From contig NZ_AUBQ01000003.1 of the NCBI RefSeq assembly GCF_000429325.1, forward strand, positions 434,001 to 498,000: a stretch of 64,000 nt of DNA, in the 5' to 3' direction. Every line of letters begins with the position of its first letter. Position 1 is the first letter of the stretch. Of the stretch, positions 27,180 to 62,633 are shown piece by piece. A program made the translations under genes and the position numbers. The notes beneath the pieces are model-generated. The model saw only the letters and a program-made list of their open reading frames with translations, had not been told where the DNA came from and did not search any database. Origin of the DNA: Fundidesulfovibrio putealis DSM 16056. GTDB taxonomy: Bacteria; Desulfobacterota; Desulfovibrionia; Desulfovibrionales; Desulfovibrionaceae.

Positions 27180-28157
27180 CTACCTCGTGGCGATGCACTT
27201 CCTGGCCAGATCGGCCATTATCTCGCGCGCCATCATTTCTGTCTGGGGCTTGGGGAACTGCCCGTCGGCCTTCACTGAGTGCCCTTTGTGCTCGGTCTCG
27301 GGCGTTATGAGCGACGAGAACAGATACACCTGCAAGGGCGCCAGTGCCGGGTCGTCCTTGATGTTCTTGCACAGGGTGTAGCCGTCCATCACCGGCATCT
27401 CCACGTCGGAGATGACCACGTCCAGCATGTCGCAGATGGTCAGCCCCTGTTCCCTTGCCTCCTGGTTCTTGGCCCGAAGGATGTCCAGTGCGGCCTGCCC
27501 GCTGTCCGCCGAGATGACCGTGAAGGCCTCATCCTGTTCCAGGGCTTTCTTCACCATTCGCCGCACCAGCGCCTGATCGTCCACGTGCAGGACGTTGATG
27601 TTGCGGTCGGACGTGACGCCCGTGGACACCCCGAAGAAGTCCTTCCCGGCCTGCGGGTTCAGCTCGATGACGATCTTCTCCAGATCCAGGATGAACACGA
27701 TGTGTCCTTCCAGGCTCACCATGCCGGTGAAGGCGTTGCGGGAGTACTCGTTGATGTGCTTGTCGGGCTGCTCCACGTCGGCCCAGCTCAGGCGGTAGAT
27801 GCGGGTGATGCCGGAGACCAGGAAGGCTGTCATCACCTGGTTGAATTCGGTGATGATCATCTTCAGGGTGGAGTGATCGTCAGGGAGGTCCTGCTCCAGG
27901 TATCCGGCCAGGGACACGATGGGCACCACCTTGTCGCGGTCCTTGAAGTGGAAAGCCCCCCACACGCAGGAGTGCGTGGTGCCGGGCGGGCGCATGACCT
28001 GGTCGGGCAGGCGGGTGATCTTCAGAACCTTGGCGACGTTTATGCCGTAGTAGGCCCGGTGGACGGCGTCCCCGTCCGGGATGTCGAGATAGAAACACAT
28101 GATCTCGACTTCGTTGGTGCCGACTTCGGTGAGGGCCAGCTTGCGGTCAGTGCTCAT
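27180..28157 (-). CDS. cheV: CheV-type chemotaxis coupling protein (CheW plus receiver)
   Basis: The 325-residue cytoplasmic protein has a CheW-like domain (residues about 15-175, with YYGINVAKVLKI, VVPIVSLAGYL and ITEFNQV) followed by a receiver domain (about 190-320). The receiver shows VLHVDDQ, the phospho-accepting aspartate in VVISDVEMPVMDGY and a late Lys-Pro. CheV links chemoreceptors to CheA and adjusts the response by phosphorylation. A paralogue lies on the other side of the type VI genes at 35952. It is transcribed away from that cluster. Confidence 0.93.
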   Translation of the reverse strand: MSTDRKLALTEVGTNEVEIMCFYLDIPDGDAVHRAYYGINVAKVLKITRLPDQVMRPPGTTHSCVWGAFHFKDRDKVVPIVSLAGYLEQDLPDDHSTLKMIITEFNQVMTAFLVSGITRIYRLSWADVEQPDKHINEYSRNAFTGMVSLEGHIVFILDLEKIVIELNPQAGKDFFGVSTGVTSDRNINVLHVDDQALVRRMVKKALEQDEAFTVISADSGQAALDILRAKNQEAREQGLTICDMLDVVISDVEMPVMDGYTLCKNIKDDPALAPLQVYLFSSLITPETEHKGHSVKADGQFPKPQTEMMAREIMADLARKCIATR

Positions 28158-28600
28158 GTACGACCTCGAGTTGGGTGGTGGCGGGGGAAGGCCCGCCGCA
28201 TGCGCAGGCGGGGAGCTGGCCGCTTCGCGTCCTGCATGCCGTCGGATGGGGAGCGCAAAACAGGGGACGTGTACGAATCCCGGACGACCGTATGCCTATC
28301 GAACATCCTGCTCAAGTGGTAAAAAGCGTCGGCGCGACTGCGGGCCTGGGCAGCCGGGGGGCGGCGAGAGTCCGGTTGCTCGCGCGCATGGACATGGGAA
28401 CATTGCGGCGTGAGAGCCACCGGCTTGCCAGGAGCGCGAGGCGCTTGGCGTGCCGCCCGGCGGGCGTTGACTTGCGTCCACGTCTTCTTGGAACCTTTTC
28501 CGTCTTTTTTCCACACAGGCTCTTTGAACCGGCAGAAATCTTTGCTAGGCTCAAGGTTAGAGAAAAGTTCCGGCACACGGTCCCATGGAGGCTTGCTGTT
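28158..28600. other. 443-bp divergent intergenic region upstream of the type VI operon
   Basis: No gene is supported here, although a frame is open through it. It should hold the cheV promoter (minus) and the promoter of the ComFB-tss operon (plus). Visible elements are a short palindrome around 28190-28215 and the sigma-70-like site at 28524. Confidence 0.5.
28524..28551 (+). promoter_or_regulatory. Candidate sigma-70-type promoter of the ComFB-T6SS operon
   Basis: TTGAAC (28524-28529) and TAGGCT (28546-28551) are 16 bp apart, about 50 bp before the ComFB-like ATG. The match is moderate. A nearby sigma-54-like string has the wrong spacing. Confidence 0.35.
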
Positions 28601-28894
28601 ATGAAGGATGAGCTCCTGCTGGTGAAAGGCGTGAACCTGACCAATATCCGCAACAAGAATGAGGTACGGGTGGCCAGGCTGATGGAGAAGGTGCTGGCGG
28701 CGGAGGGCGATCCCGTGACGGACCCCCTGGACATCCAGGATGTCTACGCCCTGGCTCTGAACATCCTGCCGTCGCGCTATCGTCAGGCGGGAACCATCGT
28801 GCTGTCCGAGCCGGTCAAGGACACCCACATCGAATCGGCCATCCGCCGCGCCATGCGCACCGTGCAGGAGCGCCCCAGCCGCCCTGCCGATTAG
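28601..28894 (+). CDS. ComFB-like protein
   Basis: The 97-residue protein matches the late-competence ComFB pattern: a helical start (MKDELLLVKGVNLTNIRNKNEVRVARLMEKVL), then DIQDVYALALNILPSRY, the conserved D-V-x-A-L-A-L-N-x-L-P-x-x-Y signature. ComFB proteins have recently been described as c-di-GMP receptors in cyanobacteria and other bacteria; whether this one binds a nucleotide is inference. The ATG at 28601 has GGAGG nine bases upstream; a longer open frame starting at 28175 is not coding-like. It precedes tssB by 89 bp and may set type VI expression or assembly in response to a second messenger. Confidence 0.75.
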   Translation: MKDELLLVKGVNLTNIRNKNEVRVARLMEKVLAAEGDPVTDPLDIQDVYALALNILPSRYRQAGTIVLSEPVKDTHIESAIRRAMRTVQERPSRPAD

Positions 28895-28983
28895 GCCTGT
28901 GGGCAAAGCGGAAAAAATACTTCCCATCCAACGGGTTTCTGGTAGGAAGAAGTTGAAACTCCCAATCCCTTCAGGAGGGTATC

Positions 28984-29466
28984 ATGGCTCAGGAAGCGTC
29001 CGTCGCCCCTAAGGAACGTGTGAACATCGTCTACAAGCCCGCCACCGGCGACGCCAAGGAAGAGATCGAACTTCCCTTGAAGCTCCTGGTGCTTGGCGAT
29101 TTCGTCAATCGCGCCGATGACCGCACTCTGGAAAACCGCGAGCCTATAAGCGTCGACAAGGACAACTTCGACGACGTGCTCAAGGCCCAGAAGGTCGAAC
29201 TGAACATGACCGTGGCCAACAAGGTCTCCGGCAAGGAAGGCGAGGAACTGGGCGTCCACCTGGGTTTCAACAGCCTGAAGGACTTCGAGCCGGACGCCAT
29301 CGCGGCCAAGGTCCCCGAACTCCAGAAGCTCATGGAGTTGCGCGAGGCCCTGAAAGCCCTCAAGGGGCCGCTGGCCAACGTGCCGGAGTTCCGCAAGAAG
29401 GTTCAGGACATGGTGCAGGACCCCGGCCTTCGGGACCGCCTGCTGAAGGAACTCGGCCTGGGCTGA
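28984..29466 (+). CDS. tssB: Type VI secretion sheath small subunit TssB
   Basis: TssB (VipA) pairs with TssC to form the contractile sheath. The 160-residue protein has the family start RVNIVYKPATGDAKEEIELPLKLLVLGDF and the sequence LGVHLGFNSLKDFEPDAIA, with the C-terminal helices ELREALKALKGPLANVPEFRK. The ATG at 28984 follows TCAGGAGGG. It is the first of the core tss genes in this operon. Confidence 0.95.
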   Translation: MAQEASVAPKERVNIVYKPATGDAKEEIELPLKLLVLGDFVNRADDRTLENREPISVDKDNFDDVLKAQKVELNMTVANKVSGKEGEELGVHLGFNSLKDFEPDAIAAKVPELQKLMELREALKALKGPLANVPEFRKKVQDMVQDPGLRDRLLKELGLG

Positions 29467-29555
29467 GCCCTGGTCCTGCCCGTGCTGGCTGATATTTCCC
29501 GTTCTTGACGCAGGGCGGCCGCCCCGGACGAGGCCGCCACAAAGGAGGATTTCAG

Positions 29556-31049
29556 ATGGCCGACGAAGCGACACAGGCCCAGGAAGCCCCGGCGCAAGCC
29601 GCTGCGGCTGCTGCCGACGCCTCGCTTTTGGACGATATCGTCGAGGCGACAAAGCTAAAACCCTCGGACGACGCCTTCTCAACCACCAAGCAGGGGCTCC
29701 AGGCCTTCCTGGAGGAGCTGGTCAAGCCCGAGCGCGCCGGTGCGCGCATCTCGGGCGCGCTGGTGGACGACATGATCTCCCAGCTGGACCAGAAGCTCTC
29801 CGCACAGGTCAACGAGATCCTGCACAATCAGGATTTTCGCAAGATGGAGTCCGCCTGGCGCTCGCTCAAGTATCTGGTGATGCACACCGATTTCCGCGAG
29901 AACGTGCGCCTCCAGTTCGTCAACGTCAGCAAGGAAGACCTGCTGAGCGACTTCGAGGACGCGCCCGAGGTGGTGAAGTCCGGCCTGTACAAGCAGGTCT
30001 ACACGGCGGAATACGGCCAGTTCGGCGGCCAGCCCTTCGGCGCCATGATCGCCAACTACGATTTCGGCCCCGGACCCCAGGACGTGAAGCTGCTGCAATA
30101 CTGCGCCTCGGTGGCCACCATGGCCCACGCGCCTTTCATCGCCGCAGCCGGGCCGCAGATGTTCGGCATCGAGAAGTGGGAGGACCTGCCCAACCTGAAG
30201 GACCTGCAATCCATCTTCGAGATGCCCCAGTACACCAAGTGGAACGCCCTGCGCGAGTCGGAAGACGCCCGCTACCTGGGGCTTACCCTGCCGCGCTTCC
30301 TGCTGCGCCTGCCGTTTGGCCCGGACACCGCGCCCGCCAAGAGCTTCACCTTCAAGGAAGACGTGTCCGGCGGCGACGACGACTTCTGCTGGGGTAACGC
30401 GGCCTTCGCCTTCGCCTCGCGCCTGACGGACTCCTTCGCCAAGTACCGCTGGTGCGCCAACATCATCGGCCCCCAGGGCGGCGGCGCGGTGGAAGACCTG
30501 CCCCTGTACCAGTACGAGGCCATGGGCGAGATACAGACCAAGATTCCCACCCAGGTGCTCATCAGCGAGCGCCGCGAGTTCGAGCTGGCCGAGCAGGGCT
30601 TCATCGCGCTCACCATGCGCAAGAACTCCGACAACGCGGCCTTCTTCTCCGCCAACTCCGTGCAGAAGCCCAAGTATTTCGGCATCTCCAAGGAAGGCAA
30701 GGAGGCCGAGCTCAACTACAAGCTCTCCACGCAGCTGCCCTACATGTTCATCATGAACCGCCTGGCGCACTACATCAAGGTGATCCAGCGCGAGAACATC
30801 GGCACCTGGAAGGAACGCTCGGACCTGGAAGACGAACTGAACAAGTGGATCAGCCAGTACGTCACCGAGATGGACAACCCCGCGCCCAGCGTGCGCTCCA
30901 GGCGTCCTCTGCGCATGGCCAAGATCGAGGTGCAGGACGTGCCCGGCGATCCCGGATTCTATTCCGTGTCGCTTTTGGCCAGGCCGCACTTCAAGTACAT
31001 GGGCGCGTCGTTCACCTTGTCCCTGGTGGGCAAGCTGGACAAGAAATAA
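29556..31049 (+). CDS. tssC: Type VI secretion sheath large subunit TssC
   Basis: The 497-residue TssC (VipB) contains the segments RKMESAWRSLKYLV, PFGAMIANYDFG, LPRFLLRLPFG, FCWGNAAFAFASRL and the C-terminal YYS-type beta strands (PGFYSVSLLARPHFKYMG) that hold TssB in the sheath. An Ala/Gln-rich N-terminus precedes DDIVEATKLK. The ATG at 29556 follows AAAGGAGGAT. It lies 89 bp after tssB and 24 bp before hcp, the usual order. Confidence 0.96.
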   Translation: MADEATQAQEAPAQAAAAAADASLLDDIVEATKLKPSDDAFSTTKQGLQAFLEELVKPERAGARISGALVDDMISQLDQKLSAQVNEILHNQDFRKMESAWRSLKYLVMHTDFRENVRLQFVNVSKEDLLSDFEDAPEVVKSGLYKQVYTAEYGQFGGQPFGAMIANYDFGPGPQDVKLLQYCASVATMAHAPFIAAAGPQMFGIEKWEDLPNLKDLQSIFEMPQYTKWNALRESEDARYLGLTLPRFLLRLPFGPDTAPAKSFTFKEDVSGGDDDFCWGNAAFAFASRLTDSFAKYRWCANIIGPQGGGAVEDLPLYQYEAMGEIQTKIPTQVLISERREFELAEQGFIALTMRKNSDNAAFFSANSVQKPKYFGISKEGKEAELNYKLSTQLPYMFIMNRLAHYIKVIQRENIGTWKERSDLEDELNKWISQYVTEMDNPAPSVRSRRPLRMAKIEVQDVPGDPGFYSVSLLARPHFKYMGASFTLSLVGKLDKK

Positions 31050-31073
31050 CCAACCCACCATGGAGGTATAGTC

Positions 31074-31559
31074 ATGGCTCTTACCGCGTACATGAAGGTC
31101 ACGGGCAAGACTCAGGGGCAGATCAAGGGAGATTGCGACCAGTCCGACTCCAAGAAGAAGGACACCATGCTGGCGTACCAGTCCAACCACTATGTGGAGA
31201 TCCCCAAGGATACCCACACCGGGTTGCCCACCGGCCAGCGCATCCATCATCCCTTCACCGTGACCATCCACAAGAACAACGGCTCTCCCAAGCTGGCCCA
31301 GGCCTGCTGCAAGGGCGAGCAATGCACCGTGGAGATCAACTACTTCCGCATCAAGCCCGACGGAAAGGAAGAGAACTACTACACGGTGAAGATGGAAGAC
31401 GCCATCATCGTCATGTTCCGGGAATACACTCCCATGACCTTCCTGCCCGACAACAAGCCCTTCCACGATATGGAAGAGGTGAGCTTCACCTATTCGAAGA
31501 TCACCTGGACCTACAACGACGGCAACATCGAATACACCGACGACTGGAAGGGCGCGTAA
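31074..31559 (+). CDS. hcp: Type VI secretion tube protein Hcp (TssD)
   Basis: The 161-residue Hcp forms the hexameric inner tube and is secreted. It starts MALTAYMKVTGKTQGQIKGDC and has RIHHPFTVTIHKNNGSPKLAQACCKGE and MEEVSFTYSKITWTYNDG, standard Hcp strands. TGGAGG lies eight bases before the ATG. Two adjacent cysteines (ACC) and others are present; many Hcp proteins lack them. A very stable hairpin follows the gene and may protect or shorten its transcript. Confidence 0.95.
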   Translation: MALTAYMKVTGKTQGQIKGDCDQSDSKKKDTMLAYQSNHYVEIPKDTHTGLPTGQRIHHPFTVTIHKNNGSPKLAQACCKGEQCTVEINYFRIKPDGKEENYYTVKMEDAIIVMFREYTPMTFLPDNKPFHDMEEVSFTYSKITWTYNDGNIEYTDDWKGA

Positions 31560-31571
31560 GCCGGATATCCC

Positions 31572-31597
31572 CCCGGCGGCCCGCATGGGCCGCCGGG
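31572..31597 (+). terminator. Strong hairpin after hcp
   Basis: CCCGGCGGCCC (31572-31582) pairs perfectly with GGGCCGCCGGG (31587-31597) around a GCAT loop. With no T-run it may act as a 3'-end stabiliser or partial terminator, favouring high hcp expression. Confidence 0.55.
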
Positions 31598-31745
31598 ACT
31601 TGACGGGCAGCACGTTTGAGATCAGGCAGCAGGCGATTTGTCGGGTTCAGGCCTGGCAGGCGTCGATTGGAGCAGGGCGGGCGAGTCGCGGTGAACCCGC
31701 CGCATCACATGCACCGCATCGGGGGCGTCGCCCCAGGAGTTCATC

Positions 31746-31889
31746 ATGTTCGTTTCCATGTCGCTTTTTCCACTGGTCGATCCGATTGTGGACGTCATCG
31801 TGGACCCTGAGCGCGATTCCATCATCGATCCCATCAGCGGCGAGTCCTGGACCCCTGACGGCGGTGCGTCACCCAGCACGACCCCGTAA
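31746..31889 (+). CDS. Small acidic protein (47 aa) in the type VI operon
   Basis: This frame is short but has AGGAG six bases before its ATG. The product starts MFVSMSLFPLVDPIVDVIVDPERD and continues IIDPISGESWTPDGG. It is dominated by Asp-Pro and Val-Asp steps with no cysteine. It follows hcp by 186 bp, and two more small acidic frames follow it. A hydrophobic N-terminal half and acidic tail could suit a chaperone, immunity or tube-binding peptide, but I recognise no family. Confidence 0.5.
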   Translation: MFVSMSLFPLVDPIVDVIVDPERDSIIDPISGESWTPDGGASPSTTP

Positions 31890-31933
31890 GGTCCCCCCGG
31901 CATACCGGCACAACCTGAACAGTCGAGGTCCGC

Positions 31934-32131
31934 ATGGCCGAAGCGCAATCCTACTTCTCGCCGGATGATCCGTCCGACGAGCTGTTCGTCCTGCCCGAGG
32001 ACTACGTGAAGGACCCCGTGTTCGTTCCCGGCGACGGGTGCGACGCTGAAGAGGGACAGGCGCAGGCCCAGGCCGCCGCGCCCGAACCGGACAGCGGCGC
32101 CAAGCAGGGCGGTCAGGCGAGCAGCGGCTAG
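31934..32131 (+). CDS. Small acidic protein (65 aa) in the type VI operon
   Basis: The product begins MAEAQSYFSPDDPSDELFVLPEDYVKDPVFVPGDG and ends in a low-complexity Ala/Gln/Glu/Ser tail. GAGG lies eight bases before the ATG. It is strongly acidic, probably partly disordered, and shares the DP/VPGDG flavour of the preceding 47-residue frame. No known domain is recognised; its place between hcp and tssE suggests a link with tube or baseplate. Confidence 0.55.
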   Translation: MAEAQSYFSPDDPSDELFVLPEDYVKDPVFVPGDGCDAEEGQAQAQAAAPEPDSGAKQGGQASSG

Positions 32132-32196
32132 CGCCACGCCGCTTGACCCAAACCCCATACCGCACTAAGCCCCTGCCTCTTTCAGGAGGAAGCACC

Positions 32197-32397
32197 ATGC
32201 GCGGCGACGACGACGATTTCAAACGCGGCTCCTGCGGCGACGACGACACCACCCCCGAGGACCGCACCTGCCCCGACCTGACCCCGGCCACCGGGCGCGA
32301 CAACATCCAGATGTTCTGGGAATCTATCGGCATGAAGCCCGGCGACGACTGGAAGAAAGAGGCCGAGCCTTGCAAGAAGCGCGGGGGCGACTGCTAG
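32197..32397 (+). CDS. Small acidic cysteine-containing protein (66 aa) in the type VI operon
   Basis: The product starts MRGDDDDFKRGSCGDDDTTPEDRTCPDL, has a central NIQMFWESIGMKPGDDWKKE helix and ends EPCKKRGGDC. Four cysteines are spread over 66 residues, which would permit disulfides or metal binding. AGGAGGA lies seven bases upstream of the ATG, a strong site. Its stop codon abuts the left end of a MITE-like element. No family is recognised. Confidence 0.6.
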   Translation: MRGDDDDFKRGSCGDDDTTPEDRTCPDLTPATGRDNIQMFWESIGMKPGDDWKKEAEPCKKRGGDC

Positions 32398-32521
32398 CAG
32401 CCTGTTGAAAAATCCTCGCTGGCTACGTTGCATGGAAAAAGCCAAACCCTCACGTATGCCGAATACGCATCGGGCTTGACTATTTCCTGCGCCTTGCCAG
32501 CGCGTTTTTTGAACAGGCTGC
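32397..32521. mobile_element. MITE-like palindromic element
   Basis: The ends GCAGCCTGTTGAAAAA (32397-32412) and TTTTTTGAACAGGCTGC (32505-32521) are near-perfect terminal inverted repeats. Inside are CGCTGGC/GCCAGCG and CGTAT/ATACG arms, so the whole 125 bp can fold into one hairpin. It encodes no protein. Elements with GCAGCCTGTT ends recur in delta-proteobacterial genomes in my recollection. It sits between the 66-aa gene and tssE. Confidence 0.7.
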
Positions 32522-32618
32522 AAGAATCGACTTCCTCCGCTGCTGTCAGCTTCCATTGCGCCCCTGCATTGACGCGGGCGGACGGTTCCTCTAACACTCC
32601 GAAAAGAAAGGACCGTCC

Positions 32619-33035
32619 ATGTACCAGCAGCGCCTGCTCGAACGCATCCGCGAGGTGGAGAAGCACCCGGAACTGCGCGGCAACCCGGACCCCGAGGTCG
32701 TGGTGGCCTCGGTGATGAACCATCTGCGCAAGATCCTGAACACCAAGCAGGGCACCGCGCTCATCGACGACGATTTCGGCGTTCCCGACTTCACCAACCT
32801 GGGCTCCACCTTCGGCCAGGACACCATCCCGGACATCCAGCACTCCATCGCGGACGTGGTGCGTAAATACGAGCCGCGCTTAAAAGGCGTGGCCGTCACC
32901 TACATCCCCCAGAGCGACGACGTGCTCCAGGTGGCTTTCAAGCTCGAAGCCGTCATCCAGACCGAATCGCGCGAGGTGCCCGTGGTGTTCGAGACCATCA
33001 TCGACCCCGACGGCAAGGTCAGCGTCAAGGAGTAG
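32619..33035 (+). CDS. tssE: Type VI secretion baseplate protein TssE
   Basis: This 138-residue gp25-like baseplate component has the conserved core VVASVMNHLRKILNTKQGTALIDDDFGVPDFTNL and the later RYEPRLKGVAV-type segment (RKYEPRLKGVAVTYIP). The gp25 E-P-R motif is visible. It lies 97 bp after the MITE-like element, and tssF begins 3 bp downstream. TssE links sheath and baseplate. Confidence 0.93.
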   Translation: MYQQRLLERIREVEKHPELRGNPDPEVVVASVMNHLRKILNTKQGTALIDDDFGVPDFTNLGSTFGQDTIPDIQHSIADVVRKYEPRLKGVAVTYIPQSDDVLQVAFKLEAVIQTESREVPVVFETIIDPDGKVSVKE

Positions 33036-33038
33036 ACC

Positions 33039-34772
33039 GTGATCAACCGCTACTACCAGCGCGAACTGGCCAACCTGCGCGGCCTCGCGGCCGAGTTCTC
33101 CAAGAAGCACCCCGCGCTGGCCCCCATGCTCTCCGGCCCAAGCCAGGACCCGGACGTGGAGCGCCTGCTGGAAGGCTCGGCCTTCCTGTCGGGGCTCATG
33201 GCCCAGAAGCTGGACGACGAATTTCCCGAGATCATCCACGGTCTCATGCGGCTGGTGTTCCCGCACTACCTGAGCCCCGTGCCGTCCATGACCATCCTGA
33301 CGTACACGCCCAAGCGCTCGCTCATGGAGCCCCTGCACGTCCCGCCCGGAACCCAGGCCTCGTCCATTCCGGTGGAGGGCACCAACTGCACTTTCACCAC
33401 CTGCTACGGGGTGGAGCTTCTGCCGCTGGTGATCGGCGAGACCACGCTGCTCATGACCGGCGGGCGCGCCACGGCGCTGCGCGTCACCTTCGAGCTGCAA
33501 GGCATGCAGCTCTCCAAGTGGAACTCCAAGAGCCTGCGCTTCCATCTGGCCGGGGACTTCGGCCACGCCGCCGACCGCTACCTGCTGCTCATGCGCCGCA
33601 CCGCGCGCATCACCCTGCGGCCCAAGGACGGCGGCTCGCCCGTGGTGCTGCCGCGCTCGAGCCTGGTTCCCGTGGGCTTCGGCGCGGACGAGGCGGCCAT
33701 CCCGTACCCCAGCCAGTCCTATCCGGGCTATCGCATCCTTCAGGAATACTTCACGTTGCCGGAGAAGTTCCTGTTTTTTGACGTCAAGGGCCTGGACACA
33801 TGGCAGGATCGCGGGCCGGGCCAAGCCTTCGAGATGCTCTTCGAGTTCGACGGCCAGGTGGCCGACCCACCCTCGTTCAACAAGGACAGCCTGGCGCTTT
33901 TCGCCACCCCGGCCATCAACCTGTTCCCGCACGAGGCCGACCCCATCCTGCTGGACCACCGCATGCCCGAATACCGGGTCATTCCGGGCGGGGAGTCCTC
34001 CGGGCACTTCCAGGTGTACTCGGTGGACAAGGTTATCGGGTTCATGCAGGGCGCGGCGGGGCAGCGCGAATACTTCCCCTTCGAGATGTTCAACCCCATG
34101 AGCGAGGCGCGCCCGGTCTATTCCCTGACCCACCGCCAGAGCGCCCTGGAGGAGCGCACGGAGCTGTATCTGTCCGTGGCCTACCCCAAGGGCTCGGGCG
34201 ATCCGCAGACCGAGACGCTCTCCATGTCCATCCGCTGCACCAACGCCACGCTGCCGGAGAATCTCCAGATAGGCGACATCAACAAGCCCACCGAGACCTC
34301 TCCCGTGCTGGCGGATTTCTCCAACATCCGCCCGCCCACCGCCACGCGCCAGCCGCCCATCGGCAAGGAGAGCCTGTGGCGGCTTCTGTCGCACCTGTAT
34401 CTCAACTATCTGCCCCTGGCCGACACCGAGAACCTGAAGGCCCTGGTGAAGCTGTACATCTTCCCGGAGACCAAAGACCGGGCCGGAGTGCTGGCGGGCA
34501 TCAAGCGCGCCGAGGCCGTGGCCGAGATGAACGTGCAGACCACCAACCGGCTGGTGCAGGGCATCATGATGCGCGGCCAGCTGATCGAGATGAAGCTTGA
34601 TCCCACAGGGTTCGCCAGCATGGGCGACATGTACCTGTTCGGCTCGGTGCTGGACAGCTTCCTGGCGGGCTACGCGGCAGTGAACTGCTTCACGCGCCTC
34701 GGCGTGGAGGACGTCTTCAAGAAGGAGCGCTACGAATGGCCGGCCAGGATCGGGGAACGCTTCCTCTTGTAA
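33039..34772 (+). CDS. tssF: Type VI secretion baseplate protein TssF
   Basis: The 577-residue TssF begins INRYYQRELANLRGLAAEFSKKHPALAPMLSGPSQDPDVERLLEGSAFL, the diagnostic N-terminus of the family, followed by GLMRLVFPHYLSPVPSM. The start is GTG at 33039 with AAGGAG upstream. TssF dimer plus TssG and TssE form the baseplate wedge. The 3' end overlaps tssG by 37 bp, indicating coupled translation. Confidence 0.95.
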   Translation: MINRYYQRELANLRGLAAEFSKKHPALAPMLSGPSQDPDVERLLEGSAFLSGLMAQKLDDEFPEIIHGLMRLVFPHYLSPVPSMTILTYTPKRSLMEPLHVPPGTQASSIPVEGTNCTFTTCYGVELLPLVIGETTLLMTGGRATALRVTFELQGMQLSKWNSKSLRFHLAGDFGHAADRYLLLMRRTARITLRPKDGGSPVVLPRSSLVPVGFGADEAAIPYPSQSYPGYRILQEYFTLPEKFLFFDVKGLDTWQDRGPGQAFEMLFEFDGQVADPPSFNKDSLALFATPAINLFPHEADPILLDHRMPEYRVIPGGESSGHFQVYSVDKVIGFMQGAAGQREYFPFEMFNPMSEARPVYSLTHRQSALEERTELYLSVAYPKGSGDPQTETLSMSIRCTNATLPENLQIGDINKPTETSPVLADFSNIRPPTATRQPPIGKESLWRLLSHLYLNYLPLADTENLKALVKLYIFPETKDRAGVLAGIKRAEAVAEMNVQTTNRLVQGIMMRGQLIEMKLDPTGFASMGDMYLFGSVLDSFLAGYAAVNCFTRLGVEDVFKKERYEWPARIGERFLL

Positions 34773-35779
34773 TCCAGGGGCTGGCCGACAAGCCCCAGGT
34801 CTACTCCTACTTCCAGGCCGTGCGCCTGCTGAAGCTCTGGACCGGCAAGACCGGCGAGGCCGAGGCCCAGGGCTTCTACGACGACACCCTGCGGGTGCGC
34901 CCGCACCTGTCCTTGTCCTTCCCCGGCTCGGACATGACCGAGATCCTGCTGGACCCCGCAGACCCGGAACTCGGGGGCCAGGCCGCGCGCGTGGACATCA
35001 CTGCCACCTTCCTGGGGCTTTACGGCACCGGCTCGCCCCTGCCGACCTTCTATACCGAGGAGCTGCTGGACGAGCGCTCCGACGACAAGAGCGTCTCCCG
35101 CGACTTCCTGGATATCCTGGGCAACCGGACCTTCGTCCACTTCTACCGCGCCTGGGCCAAGTACCGCCTGCTGGTCAAGGCCGTGGACGAGGAGGACCGG
35201 GACTACCTGGACCGCCTCTATTGCCTTTTGGGCCTGGGGCACGAGGAACTGCGCTCCAAGCTGTCGCGCCCGTCGGCGGCGCTCCGCTACATCGGGCTGT
35301 TCACCCAGTACCCGCGCTCCGCCCTGGGGCTGAAAACCATGCTGGCCGACGCCGTGGGCCAGGGCAGCTGCGTGGACGTGGAGCAGTGCGTGCACCGCTG
35401 GGTGCCTATCCCGGAGGACCAGCGCAACTCCCTGGGAGGGGGCGGCTGCACCCTGGGCGAGGACTGCTGGGTCGGCGGGCTGGTGGAGGACCGCATGGGC
35501 AAGATCATCGTGGAGTTCGGCGGGCTGGAGGCGGCAAAGTTTCACGAACTGCTGCCGGGCCGGGAGCTCAACTACCACGTGGAGAGTCTGATCGGCATGT
35601 ATCTGGTGGAACCCGTGGAGCACGACCTGCGCCTGAAGCTCCTGCCGGGGCAGGTGCAGCCCGCCCGTCCGGGGCAGCCGCAGTGGTCGCGCCTGGGTTA
35701 CGACACCTGGATTCTCAGCGAGGGCTTCACCGGGGAGGCCGAAGTGACCTTCCCCGGCCTGAGCGGCGTTCCGGCCTGA
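34736..35779 (+). CDS. tssG: Type VI secretion baseplate protein TssG
   Basis: The 347-residue TssG contains YSYFQAVRLLKLW near the start (the common family F-x-x-V/A-R-x-L motif), LRVRPHLSLSFPGSDM, GLYGTGSPLPTFYTEEL, a helical FLDILGNRTFVHFYRAWAKYR region and the late LGYDTWILSEGF stretch. It is the last gene of the forward operon. The window lacks tssJ, tssK, tssL, tssM, tssA and vgrG, so the system must be completed elsewhere. Confidence 0.94.
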   Translation: MAGQDRGTLPLVIQGLADKPQVYSYFQAVRLLKLWTGKTGEAEAQGFYDDTLRVRPHLSLSFPGSDMTEILLDPADPELGGQAARVDITATFLGLYGTGSPLPTFYTEELLDERSDDKSVSRDFLDILGNRTFVHFYRAWAKYRLLVKAVDEEDRDYLDRLYCLLGLGHEELRSKLSRPSAALRYIGLFTQYPRSALGLKTMLADAVGQGSCVDVEQCVHRWVPIPEDQRNSLGGGGCTLGEDCWVGGLVEDRMGKIIVEFGGLEAAKFHELLPGRELNYHVESLIGMYLVEPVEHDLRLKLLPGQVQPARPGQPQWSRLGYDTWILSEGFTGEAEVTFPGLSGVPA

Positions 35780-35951: not shown

Positions 35952-36905
35952 CTACCCCTTGCGCAGCAAATCCATGGCCTTCTCGATCAGCTCGCCGATC
36001 TTGGCCTTGGAAATCTGGGCGTCGGCCCCGACCGAGACCCCCTTGTGGTACAGGCTCTCCGTGATGATGGACGAGCACAGCATGATGGGGATGGACTTCA
36101 GGATGGGGTCTTCCTTGATCTTGCGTGTCAGGTGATGGCCGTCCATCAGGGGCATCTCGATGTCCAGGATGGCGATGTTGACCAGATCCTTGAGGTTTGC
36201 GCCTTCGTTTGTGACTTTCGCCTTGACCTCTTCGAGATACTCCCAGGCCGTCTTGCCGTTCTCGAACTGATGAACCTCGAAGCCGTTGTCTGTCAGCAGC
36301 TGGAACACCATGTTGCGGGCCATGGTGGAGTCGTCGGCTATGACGGCTTTGTAGGACGTCCCTTCGAGCTCTTTCTTCATCTCGCTGCTGACGGTCGTGT
36401 TCACCACGGTCTGCTCGTTCAGCTTGGCGACGATCTTCTCCAGGTCCAGAAGGAACACGATCTTTCCTTCCAGCCGGACGATGCCCGTGATGGAGTTCGA
36501 GGTGAGCGAGGAGAGCTGGATGTTGGGCGCTTTGACCTCGTTCCAGCTGAGGCGGTAGATGCGCGTGACGCCAGACACCAGAAAAGACGTGATGACCTGG
36601 TTGAATTCCGTGACGATCACCTTCAGCACGCCGGTCTTCTGGAGTTTCTTGCCCACCCACTGGCTCAGGTCGATGAGCGGCACGATCTCCGAGCGCAGGT
36701 CGAAGGCGCCCATCACCGACGGGTGTGACGCGTCGGGCATGTCCGTGAGCTCGGGCAGGCGGATGATCTCCAGCACCTTGGCCACGTTCATGCCGTAGTA
36801 GGTCCTGCTCACGTTGCCCGTTTCGGTGTTCTCCTCATCGACGTAGAATTCGACGACTTCGAACTCGTTCGTTCCGGACTCCAGCAAGATGTCTGATCGC
36901 GACAT
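35952..36905 (-). CDS. cheV: CheV-type chemotaxis coupling protein, second paralogue
   Basis: The 317-residue CheV has a CheW-like domain (about 10-165: EVVEFYVDE, YYGMNVAKVLEI, IVPLIDLSQWV) and a receiver (about 185-310) with the phospho-acceptor in IAILDIEMPLMDGHH. It shares long blocks with the 27180 protein, for example VTEFNQV followed by FLVSG-x-TRIYRLSW, so they are paralogues. I chose the ATG at 36905 with GGAGG five bases upstream rather than the open start at 36959. It converges on tssG. Confidence 0.93.
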   Translation of the reverse strand: MSRSDILLESGTNEFEVVEFYVDEENTETGNVSRTYYGMNVAKVLEIIRLPELTDMPDASHPSVMGAFDLRSEIVPLIDLSQWVGKKLQKTGVLKVIVTEFNQVITSFLVSGVTRIYRLSWNEVKAPNIQLSSLTSNSITGIVRLEGKIVFLLDLEKIVAKLNEQTVVNTTVSSEMKKELEGTSYKAVIADDSTMARNMVFQLLTDNGFEVHQFENGKTAWEYLEEVKAKVTNEGANLKDLVNIAILDIEMPLMDGHHLTRKIKEDPILKSIPIMLCSSIITESLYHKGVSVGADAQISKAKIGELIEKAMDLLRKG

Positions 36906-37278
36906 GGCGGCCTCCTGTCTTGGACGCTGTGTGAAAACGATTAAGCCGGTGGAGACCATGTGTTCGCAAAACGGTTTTCGCGTGCCGGCTGCATTGAATC
37001 GACGTTACCGTGTCGTGAAGTGCGCGTTCTGCCGCGTTTGCTCAACTCGTGCTGCTGAGGCGACACGAAGCGAAAGGCCGCGAGAAGGGCGCACCCGCAT
37101 GGTGTGCCTGTGCAACCCGGCTTTCTCGCGCCTGAAGGAAGGTCGAGATCCGTGGTTTTCCGAGCCTGCCTCACGACAGGGGTGGCGAAGATTAGGCAGC
37201 CCAACTAAATAGAAAAAATCATTTTAACGCAACTGCATTGTGATGATTTCCAGCAGCATTTTCATCCAGGCGGGATGT
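36906..37278 (-). other. 373-bp gap between the HPP gene and cheV
   Basis: No gene is seen. The right end holds an AT-rich terminator-like hairpin (37216-37249). The left end must carry the cheV promoter; I found no sigma-28-type motif. Confidence 0.45.
37212..37249 (-). terminator. Terminator of the CBS-HPP pair
   Basis: On the minus strand AAATCAT (37249-37243) pairs with ATGATTT (37222-37216), followed by a T-run. The loop is about 20 bases. Confidence 0.45.
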
Positions 37279-59911: not shown

Positions 59912-60281
59912 CGCGGTCAGGCCCTTGAGTCTGGCATCATCCCGCGCTCGCCAGCGCAATGCGGCCTGCACATGGAGCGTGCTCAGCGAGGCGCAGAGGT
60001 ATTGCGAGTTCATGGCGCTGGCGTTGCCGCCGTGCTCCTGAAACCCTGCTTTCAGGGGGCGAGGAGCGGTGCTGCCCGGACTCCTGCTGAAGCGTGACGA
60101 GAAGCAGGTCTGAAGTGTCGTTGCTCTTTTGAGCTTATGTCGATTCTGGTTGTCCCATCATCATGAAATGTGAACAGCAGAGAAGGAATACGTTGTGAGA
60201 GTGCGTTCTTTTATTGGTATCGGTCCAGATTTTCTGACAGGCGTCACCGGCTCACTTCTGAATGTGAAGAGGGCGGCGTGC

Positions 60282-62633
60282 ATGGCGAACGGCTTCGCGA
60301 TGGCTGCACTGATGATCCTTGTCCTGGCAGTCTTTGCCGTTCCCCAGGCCTTTGCGGTGGAATCAATAATCGAAGCGCCGGAGAATGCCCGCCAGGCAGT
60401 CGCCATGGTGGAGAAGGCTCAGGCGTACATTCAGAAATACGGCAAGGAAAAGGCCCTCGCGGAGTTCAACAATCCCGATGGCGAGTTCGTGAAGGATGGC
60501 CTGTACGTGTTTGCGTACGACTTCCATGGCGTCAACAAATCCCTGGCCACAAACCCCGCGCTGGTCGGCAAGAACCTCATCGACATGAAGGACGCCGACG
60601 GCAAGGATATGATCAAGGACCTGATCGCCATCGCCAAGAGCGGCGGCGGCTGGTACGAATACAAGTGGGAAGGCCACGACAAGTACTCGTATGTTGTCAA
60701 GGTGGACGACTCCCTGTGGATCGGCTGCGGAGACTATAAGAACGAAGCGGTCACCATGGTGGAGAAGGCGCTGAAGTTCATCCACGACAAAGGCAAGGAT
60801 AAGGCCCTGGCCGAGTTCAACAATCCCGGCGGCCTCTTCGTGGATCGTGGACTGTACATTTTCGCGTATGACTTCAACGGCGTGAACAAGGCCTTGGCCA
60901 CCCACCCCTCCATGGTCGGCAAGGACCTTCTTGATATGAAGGACGCCGACGGGCGCGAAATCATCAAGGACATGATCGAGATCGTCAATCGTGGCGGGGG
61001 GTGGTACGATTACATCTGGGACGGCCAGGAAAAGTCCTCGTATGTGGTCAAGGTGAACGATTCCCTGTGGATCGGCTGCGGCGAATACCGGGAGAATACG
61101 TTCAAGGTCTATTCCCTGTTCCTCATCGCCCTGGTGCCCATTGTCTGGCTGATGATGTCGCTTGGCGTCCTGAAGATGCCCGCGCACACCACGGCAATGA
61201 TCTCCCTTGTGCTGACCATCGTCCTGGCCAGCGTCGCCTTCAAGATGTCCAACATCGCAGTGCTGACAGCTACTTTGGAAGGCGTGGCGCTGGGACTCTG
61301 GCCCATCGTCATAGTTATCGTGGCTGCCATATTCACCTACAACATGGCACTGTACACCAAGAGCATGGACACCATCAAAACCATGCTCTCCAACATCACC
61401 ACGGACCGCCGCATCCAGGTGTTGATCCTGGCCTGGGGGTTCGGCGGCTTCCTGGAGGCCGTGGCGGGCTACGGAACCGCCGTGGCCATCCCCGCCAGCA
61501 TCCTGGCTGCCCTGGGCTGCGAGCCGCTGTTCGCGGCGCTCATCTGCCTGACCGCCAACACCGTGCCTACGGCTTTCGGAGCCATCGGCATCCCCGTGCT
61601 GACGCTGGCGCAGATCACCAACCTGGACGTGAACATCCTGAGTTACCAGATCGCGCTGCAACTGACCCTGTTCATCGTCATCATCCCCATGTTGCTGGTG
61701 GTGCTGACCACCAGAAGCCTGAAGGGCCTGAAAGGCGTCGTCGGTATATCGTTGGCCTCCGGTGCGGCCTTTGCCATTCCGGAACTGCTGACGGCCAGAT
61801 TTTTGGGCGCGGAGCTCCCTGCGCTGGCCGGAAGCATCTGCAGCATGGGTGTGACCATCTTCATCGCAAAAACATTCTACAAAGAGGAGCAGGTCGGTAA
61901 GTCCGCCCATGAGACGGTCTCGCTTAAGAGCGGAGTCCTGGCCTGGCTGCCGTACATCCTGGTGCTGGTGTTCATCGTGGGGACCAGCCCCGTGGTGGAG
62001 CCGGTCTACAACGTGCTGTCCAACATCAAGACTTCGGTCATGATCTACCAGGGCAAGGGCGCGACGCCGTTCGTGTTCAAATGGATCGCCACTCCCGGCA
62101 CGCTGATCATCCTGGCCACCATCGTCGGCGGCCTGATCCAGGGCGCGAAGTTCGGCGAGATCAGCATGGTGTTCGGGCGTACCGTGTTGAAACTGTCCAA
62201 GTCGGCCCTGACGGTCCTGTGCATCGTGGCCATGTCCAAGGTCATGGCCTACAGCGGCATGATCTCCGCCATCGCGGTGGTCCTGGTGAAGGCTACGGGG
62301 CAGTATTTTGCGGCGATCTCTCCGCTCATCGGGGCGCTCGGCACGTTCGTGACAGGCAGCGACACCTCGGCCAACGTGCTTTTCGGCAAGCTCCAGGTGG
62401 AGGTCGCCTCGAAAACCGGAGTCGACCCCTACTGGCTGGCGGCCGCCAACACTGCCGGGGCCACGGGCGGCAAGATGATCTCGCCCCAGAGCATCGCCGT
62501 TGCCACCGCAGCCACCGGACTCGTGGGGTCCGAGGGCAAGATCCTGAACCAGACGCTCAAGTACTGCATAGTCTATGTGGCCATACTGGGTGTGTTCGTC
62601 TATGCGGGGAGCCTCTTCATCATCCCCAGGTAG
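60282..62633 (+). CDS. L-lactate permease with two N-terminal periplasmic Cache domains
   Basis: This 783-residue protein fuses a sensor to a transporter. A signal peptide (MANGFAMAALMILVLAVFAVPQAFA) is followed by two similar sCache_2-like domains at about 36-152 and 153-270. Each runs from VEKA to a final SLWIGCG, with FNNPxG, FAYDF-x-GVNK, VGK-x-L-x-DMKDADG and GGGWY-x-Y between. About 14 membrane helices follow from 275, with LctP/LldP motifs GFGGFLEAVAGYGTAVAIPASIL and TANTVPTAFGAIGIPVLTLAQIT. The permease imports lactate by H+ symport. I chose the ATG at 60282 (GAGGG upstream); a GTG at 60195 with AGAAGGA is possible but would bury the signal peptide. Ordinary LctP proteins are about 550 residues without Cache domains. 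Confidence 0.9.
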   Translation: MANGFAMAALMILVLAVFAVPQAFAVESIIEAPENARQAVAMVEKAQAYIQKYGKEKALAEFNNPDGEFVKDGLYVFAYDFHGVNKSLATNPALVGKNLIDMKDADGKDMIKDLIAIAKSGGGWYEYKWEGHDKYSYVVKVDDSLWIGCGDYKNEAVTMVEKALKFIHDKGKDKALAEFNNPGGLFVDRGLYIFAYDFNGVNKALATHPSMVGKDLLDMKDADGREIIKDMIEIVNRGGGWYDYIWDGQEKSSYVVKVNDSLWIGCGEYRENTFKVYSLFLIALVPIVWLMMSLGVLKMPAHTTAMISLVLTIVLASVAFKMSNIAVLTATLEGVALGLWPIVIVIVAAIFTYNMALYTKSMDTIKTMLSNITTDRRIQVLILAWGFGGFLEAVAGYGTAVAIPASILAALGCEPLFAALICLTANTVPTAFGAIGIPVLTLAQITNLDVNILSYQIALQLTLFIVIIPMLLVVLTTRSLKGLKGVVGISLASGAAFAIPELLTARFLGAELPALAGSICSMGVTIFIAKTFYKEEQVGKSAHETVSLKSGVLAWLPYILVLVFIVGTSPVVEPVYNVLSNIKTSVMIYQGKGATPFVFKWIATPGTLIILATIVGGLIQGAKFGEISMVFGRTVLKLSKSALTVLCIVAMSKVMAYSGMISAIAVVLVKATGQYFAAISPLIGALGTFVTGSDTSANVLFGKLQVEVASKTGVDPYWLAAANTAGATGGKMISPQSIAVATAATGLVGSEGKILNQTLKYCIVYVAILGVFVYAGSLFIIPR

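What the first reader, a model, noticed from the sequence alone, without database searches (positions are those of the whole stretch)
31746..32397. Three small acidic ORFs between hcp and tssE
Frames of 47, 65 and 66 residues each have a good ribosome site and share an Asp/Pro-rich, acidic character; the third has four cysteines. They are not standard tss genes. They could be tube-loaded peptides, Hcp chaperones or immunity factors.
Basis: partly seen in the sequence, partly recalled or inferred. Interest (0 to 1): 0.65.

Follow-up and report, generated by a model that had tools for sequence, protein, structure and literature searches.

The report
Three small genes, two unrelated stories
Three tiny acidic protein genes sit between two parts of a bacterial injection machine; the first two were found in close relatives only where the machine is present, but the third is kept by relatives in which key machine genes were not found, so it is probably just a neighbour.

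Summary
The three ORFs exist as described (47, 65, 66 aa; pI about 4.0, 4.0, 4.4) and change like protein genes: synonymous excess between the window genome and its nearest congener. They are not one set. ORF A is a peptide of Asp-Pro-hydrophobic-x tetrads ending in DPI(S/T)G. It sits after a hairpin that follows hcp in 5 of 5 congeners with tssC and 0 of 2 without, and in the same slot in one other genus (G029). ORF B follows A in 4 of those 5. ORF C is in 7 of 7 congeners, including two 100%-complete genomes without a tssC or TssK match, where it lies between comFB and a chloride-channel gene. So C appears independent of type VI secretion, and one "cargo, chaperone or immunity" idea cannot cover all three. 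A, perhaps B, remain candidate lineage-specific type VI accessory peptides; what they do is not shown. None matched Pfam, NCBIfam or PHROGs. Modest interest.

The parts
28616..28894 (+). comFB-like gene upstream of tssB; in G001/G003 it is next to ORF C
   Evidence: PF10719 E 3.3e-11; one match in each of 7 of 7 congeners
28984..29466 (+). tssB (sheath)
   Evidence: PF05591 E 4.3e-55
29505..31049 (+). tssC (sheath)
   Evidence: PF05943 E 6.5e-132 and PF18945 E 1.5e-44
31074..31559 (+). hcp (tube protein)
   Evidence: PF05638, TIGR03344
31572..31597 (+). RNA hairpin after hcp (11 pairs, GC-rich); a hairpin of different sequence sits at the same place in G004, G005 and G029
   Evidence: z -2.3 here, -1.7 to -3.5 in the five other hcp-A loci; no T run follows, so not a classic terminator
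31746..31889 (+). ORF A, 47 aa, DP-hydrophobic-x tetrad-repeat peptide; tracks the T6SS in the genus
31934..32131 (+). ORF B, 65 aa, acidic, conserved N-terminal half with a DPV/I motif; in 4 of 5 congeners with tssC
32143..32171 (+). promoter-like element before ORF C (TTGACC, 17 bases, TAAGCC); TTGACC kept in 7 of 7 congeners
   Evidence: alignment; second hexamer weak, and the consensus scan found no promoter-like site here
32197..32397 (+). ORF C, 66 aa, genus-wide small protein with nearly invariant GRDNIQMFWESIGMKPGDDW core; present without tssC/TssK in two congeners
32393..32537 (.). dispersed repeat of about 145 bp with inverted ends, touching the last bases of ORF C; not part of the genes
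   Evidence: this place and 10 further ones in the own genome
32569..32597 (+). promoter-like element before tssE (TTGACG, 17 bases, TAACAC), similar in 5 of 5 congeners with tssC
   Evidence: alignment; not found by the consensus scan
32619..33035 (+). tssE (baseplate)
   Evidence: PF04965

Best explanation
The stretch is a lineage-specific gap between two T6SS gene blocks (tssB-tssC-hcp and tssE-F-G) that carries genuine small protein genes of two kinds. Shown: A and B are under protein-level selection, lie after the hcp hairpin, and within this genus were found only in genomes with tssC. Inferred: they are made from the part of hcp transcription that passes the hairpin, and A works as a small binding peptide whose repeated Asp-Pro turns present hydrophobic side chains every fourth residue to a T6SS structural partner (tube, sheath or baseplate). 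Shown: C is present in all seven congeners, kept in two genomes without a tssC or TssK match, with a conserved TTGACC upstream. Inferred: C is a cytosolic adaptor-like protein, separately transcribed, whose invariant Trp/Phe-containing core docks on a housekeeping partner, its acidic ends being disordered; its place among tss genes is accidental.
For: C in 7 of 7 congeners, including G001 and G003 with no tssC or TssK match and no tssB, tssC, hcp, tssE or tssF match in the 15-16 kb held around C. There the order is galE, comFB, C, ClC, HPP, CBS, kinase, which matches the backbone galE ... comFB, tssB-C-hcp-A-B, C, tssE-F-G ... HPP, CBS of the window, except that the window itself has no ClC match. 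A: 5 of 5 congeners with tssC, 0 of 2 without, and in the hcp-tssE gap of G029. Synonymous excess for A, B and C between G000 and G006. Tetrad periodicity in A beats shuffling of each sequence (0 to 36 of 5000 shuffles as good in the six hcp-linked sequences) while the codons differ from unit to unit in G000. Hairpin after hcp in the six hcp-A loci folded.
Against: No expression, interaction or knockout data. The binding roles are guesses: AlphaFold2 models from two near-identical sequences were poor (A mean pLDDT 59.4, C 49.5). A second A-like ORF in G004 lies after rplS, about 15 kb from tssB, which weakens a strictly T6SS role. Outside the genus A was accepted in 1 of the 23 genomes with tssC. 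B is not found in G005, and G003 gave a weak B match (E 0.09) that I dropped on score. In distant pairs dN/dS of A is 0.4 to 1.2, and of C against G002 0.4 to 1.1. In G002 no GGAG precedes the C start. The rpoB tree puts G001+G003 as sister to the sampled T6SS-bearing congeners (89/87), so it does not say whether the T6SS was lost or gained. An orphan hcp in G001/G003 was not searched for genome-wide.
Confidence: 0.6

Rival explanations
1. All three are T6SS accessory or effector-loading proteins; C in G001/G003 is a relic of a lost T6SS.
For: All three lie between hcp and tssE in 4 of 5 congeners with tssC, and the collinear flanks fit a T6SS loss around C.
Against: In G001 and G003 C has an intact frame, ribosome site and upstream TTGACC, and an unchanged core, while tssB, tssC, hcp, tssE and tssF are missing from the stretch around it. 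But synonymous excess between G001 and G003 alone is not significant (p=0.11), so recent loss of function is not excluded.
Confidence: 0.15
2. C is an orphan immunity protein kept by T6SS-free relatives to survive attack by kin.
For: Orphan immunity genes in T6SS-free strains are known (recalled, no call); C is kept without tssC.
Against: No effector-like gene was seen next to it in the window; the core is nearly invariant across the genus, whereas immunity proteins usually diversify with their effectors (recalled); no family match.
Confidence: 0.06
3. A and B are regulatory leader ORFs whose translation, with the hairpin, tunes hcp versus tssE expression, the peptides themselves being irrelevant.
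For: Hairpin before A at the six hcp-A loci folded; short ORFs; divergent C-terminal halves.
Against: Protein-level constraint between G000 and G006 and the tetrad repeat kept with changing codons; tssE seems to have its own conserved upstream element.
Confidence: 0.15
4. The ORFs are chance frames in GC-rich intergenic DNA.
For: GC-rich DNA gives many long spurious frames here.
Against: Conserved starts, frames and synonymous excess.
Confidence: 0.03

Closest known systems
Type VI secretion accessory genes (non-core genes inside tss clusters)
   Same: A and B lie among tss genes, are not core genes, and track the T6SS within the genus
   Different: No sequence family match; gaps of about 60-120 bases in 10 of 11 distinct adjacent hcp-tssE pairs outside the genus leave no room for such genes; a second A-like ORF lies after rplS in G004
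Lineage-restricted small orphan proteins
   Same: C: short, no family, credible in 7 of 348 genomes of the order, all 7 the congeners, strongly conserved core
   Different: Nothing found that sets it apart from this broad kind; function unknown; cellular genomes outside the order were not searched
PA2723 of Pseudomonas aeruginosa (PDB 6tcb)
   Same: The ORF B profile matches a 27-residue stretch (DPVYVP...), E 0.008
   Different: Short stretch, much of it Ala-rich; not accepted as homology

Membership tests
T6SS machinery component (for ORF C) | present only in genomes with the T6SS | tested here: not met
   C in G001 and G003, which have no tssC or TssK match
T6SS machinery component (for ORF A) | co-occurrence with tss genes in the genus | tested here: met
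   5 of 5 with tssC, 0 of 2 without; but a further A-like ORF lies after rplS in G004
T6SS machinery component (for ORF A) | general presence in related T6SS clusters | tested here: not met
   accepted in 1 (G029) of 23 genomes with tssC outside the genus among the 99
T6SS machinery component (for ORF B) | co-occurrence with tss genes in the genus | tested here: inconclusive
   4 of 5 with tssC (not G005); 0 of 2 without, after dropping a weak G003 match at E 0.09
Hcp-loaded cargo or Hcp chaperone | binds Hcp (lumen) and, for cargo, is secreted with it | not testable with these tools
   no complex prediction; needs secretome or pull-down
T6SS immunity protein | adjacent cognate effector and neutralisation of it | tested here: inconclusive
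   no effector-like gene seen next to A-C in the window; neighbours are hcp and tssE; neutralisation not testable
Cys metal-binding small protein (ORF C) | conserved cysteines | tested here: not met
   4 Cys in G000 and G006, none in G002, G004 and G005, one in G001 and in G003

The most novel reading that the evidence does not exclude
ORF A founds a new class of tiny T6SS partner peptides: a four-residue Asp-Pro turn repeat, co-transcribed with hcp past a hairpin, that binds the Hcp tube or the sheath and sets its assembly or loading in a branch of the Desulfovibrionaceae.
Probability: 0.12. Interest if true: 0.6.

Novelty: new member of a known kind. Interest (0 to 1): 0.3.

Why it matters
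It separates a real but modest lead (a T6SS-linked Asp-Pro tetrad peptide after hcp) from a likely bystander (ORF C). It shows that position inside a tss cluster is not by itself evidence of a T6SS role, and that two congeners without tssC and TssK give a natural test. If A does bind the tube or sheath, it would be an unusually small accessory part of the machine.

Tried and rejected
Family and structure look-ups: no match for A, B or C in Pfam at E<=1, NCBIfam or PHROGs; PDB profile searches gave nothing for C, one match at E 0.97 for A and one at E 0.008 for B, neither accepted. Viral contigs: no relative of B or C; A was not scanned there. Plasmids: none for C; A and B not searched there. 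Rfam: none in 31000-33100.

Weak matches dropped. For C: G034 (27%, stop inside); G182 and G015 (E 9e-4 and 0.006), whose frames lack the core. For B: G086 (no B-like frame seen) and the 19 further genomes at E 0.002 to 0.1, dropped on score without a look one by one, among them the congener G003 (E 0.09). For A: G212, whose best match (E 3.5e-5) scores about as well as the accepted G029 (1.5e-5), was looked at and not accepted. It is a run of near-identical 12-base units coding for TEPL/ADPL tetrads, its only start is a TTG without a GGAG, and it abuts another gene's start. That is a judgement. A second weak G212 match and G028, G045, G170, G025, G254, G286, G335 and G087 (E 0.048 to 0.091) were dropped, all but the second G212 match (seen) on score alone.

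Mistakes corrected: loci from the genome search on the minus strand are not turned round. I first read L012, L053 and L075 in the wrong orientation and built a wrong rpoB tree; one search replaces both. The AlphaFold2 models were too poor for a fold search and none was run.

Ideas dropped: a Cys cluster in C (Cys not conserved); A and B as one duplicated family because both carry DP[IV] motifs (the tetrad test gives B no clear repeat in 3 of 4 sequences; G004 had 71 of 5000 shuffles as good).

Full report
What is there. The window (G000:C1:434001-498000) holds tssB 28984-29466, tssC 29505-31049, hcp 31074-31559, tssE 32619-33035, a gene at 33039-34772 that I call tssF from its position (no family search run on it) and tssG 34736-35779. 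Between hcp and tssE lie the three reported ORFs: A (31746-31889, 47 aa), B (31934-32131, 65 aa) and C (32197-32397, 66 aa).

Are they genes? Between G000 and G006, A has 10 synonymous and 4 nonsynonymous changes on 34.5 and 106.5 sites (dN/dS 0.11), B 7 and 6 on 44.7 and 150.3 (0.23), C 4 and 1 on 39.7 and 155.3 (0.06); one-sided Fisher p 1e-4, 0.013 and 0.007, uncorrected. Frames and starts persist in more distant congeners. Distant pairs are weaker: dN/dS of A 0.4 to 1.2 (G000-G002 p=0.10), of C against G002 0.4 to 1.1, C G001-G003 p=0.11. C's conservation is concentrated in the core GRDNIQMFWESIGMKPGDDW; MFWESIGMKPGDDW is invariant in all 7, and G002 differs at three core positions.

Distribution. 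Single-sequence queries gave matches at E<=0.01 in 3 of 99 genomes for A, 4 of 99 for B and 8 of 99 for C. Profiles over 348 genomes of the order gave C in 9 at E<=0.01 (7 congeners accepted, 2 rejected), A in 15 at E<=0.1 (5 congeners and G029 accepted) and B in 23 at E<=0.1 (4 congeners accepted). tssC was found in 28 of 99 genomes: 5 of 7 in this genus, 23 of 92 outside. TssK was found in 4 of 7 congeners; G006, only 66% complete, has tssC but no TssK match, so its miss says little, whereas G001 and G003 are both 100% complete by the tool. So in the genus A is in 5 of 5 genomes with tssC and 0 of 2 without; B in 4 of 5 and 0 of 2 (one weak G003 match dropped); C in 5 of 5 and 2 of 2.

The genomes without T6SS genes. 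In G001 and G003, C lies between comFB (PF10719 E 2.7e-10 for the G001 copy) and a chloride-channel gene (PF00654 E 7.9e-84), in the order glycosidase-like (named by me, no family match), galE, comFB, C, ClC, HPP, CBS, kinase. The window has the same backbone: glycosidase-like, galE, other genes, a CheV-like gene, comFB, tssB, tssC, hcp, A, B, C, tssE, tssF, tssG, a second CheV-like gene, HPP, CBS, other genes, then a sensor kinase only partly like G001's; it has no ClC match, though G002 has one after tssF-G. comFB has one match in 7 of 7 congeners; it lies within about 320 bases of tssB in four of the five with tssC and 3.9 kb away in G005. In 21 T6SS loci outside the genus (20 distinct) no comFB match was seen, but the DNA held upstream of tssB ranges from under 1 kb to about 8 kb. 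The rpoB tree (18 of the 30 loci held; no G006 copy) puts G001+G003 (100/100) beside the four sampled congeners with tssC (89/87), so gain and loss of the T6SS are not told apart. Either way C does not seem to need it.

The slot. Of 22 loci outside the genus examined, 12 have adjacent hcp and tssE (11 distinct; L025 repeats L064), L035 has them far apart and 9 had no tssE match. Of the 11, ten have gaps of about 60-120 bases; G029 has 321 bases, holding an A-like ORF of 42 aa. In the genus the gap is 690 to 4481 bases; in G002 it also holds a reverse-strand gene with a FliG C-terminal domain (PF01706 E 6.4e-20).

Anatomy. A hairpin lies just after hcp in the six hcp-A loci folded, with z-scores from -1.7 to -3.5 and differing sequence. 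Upstream of C, TTGACC is kept in 7 of 7 with a weak second hexamer 17 bases on in G000; G002 has no GGAG before its C start. Upstream of tssE a TTGAC ... TAAC element is similar in 5 of 5 congeners. The consensus scan found no promoter-like site in 28400-33100, so these are conserved elements, not proven promoters. A has Asp or Asn at every fourth residue for 4-5 units in six hcp-linked sequences (0 to 36 of 5000 shuffles as good), with different codons from unit to unit in G000; the A-like ORF after rplS in G004 has three units (114 of 5000).

How it may work. A and B: probably translated from hcp read-through RNA and binding a T6SS part; inferred. C: a T6SS-independent protein with a docking core; inferred. 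ComFB binds c-di-AMP and c-di-GMP in cyanobacteria (PMC12313861, passages seen); a link between ComFB and C is only a neighbourhood hint in two genomes.

Literature. Listings only: T6SS with Desulfovibrio and Hcp (12 of 17 papers listed), T6SS with small open reading frame, Hcp and TssE (10 of 270), Fundidesulfovibrio with genome (5 of 5), ComFB with c-di-GMP (2 of 2). None of the listed titles or opening abstract lines describes such ORFs; unlisted papers were not seen. That the genus is Fundidesulfovibrio was my guess and was not tested.

Verdict. Real small genes, mis-grouped. Two may be lineage-specific T6SS accessories; one is probably a bystander. Interest 0.3.

Noticed in passing
window 32393-32537: Dispersed repeat of about 145 bp with inverted ends just after ORF C; this place and 10 more in the own genome; not at this spot in G004 and G005.
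   Followed up: partly
window 28616-28894: A ComFB-domain gene close upstream of tssB in four of five congeners with tssC (3.9 kb away in G005), with no match in the upstream DNA held for 20 distinct T6SS loci outside the genus; a possible cyclic-dinucleotide link to the T6SS.
   Followed up: partly
window 27183-28157 and 35955-36959 (both -): Two CheV-like (CheW plus receiver) genes bracket the T6SS genes.
   Followed up: no
L046:2083-3504 (-): In G002 the hcp-tssE gap is 4.5 kb and holds a reverse-strand gene with a FliG C-terminal domain.
   Followed up: no
L091:5074-5274: A second A-like DP-repeat ORF with a ribosome site, following rplS (named by me from its translation) and a hairpin in G004, about 15 kb from tssB.
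   Followed up: partly
window 60195-62633: One 812-aa frame with Cache-domain matches followed by an L-lactate permease; possible sensor-transporter fusion.
   Followed up: no
G000:C1:425385-426704: TssK lies 7-9 kb to the left of the window, some 36 kb from tssB, so the T6SS genes are in at least two places.
   Followed up: no
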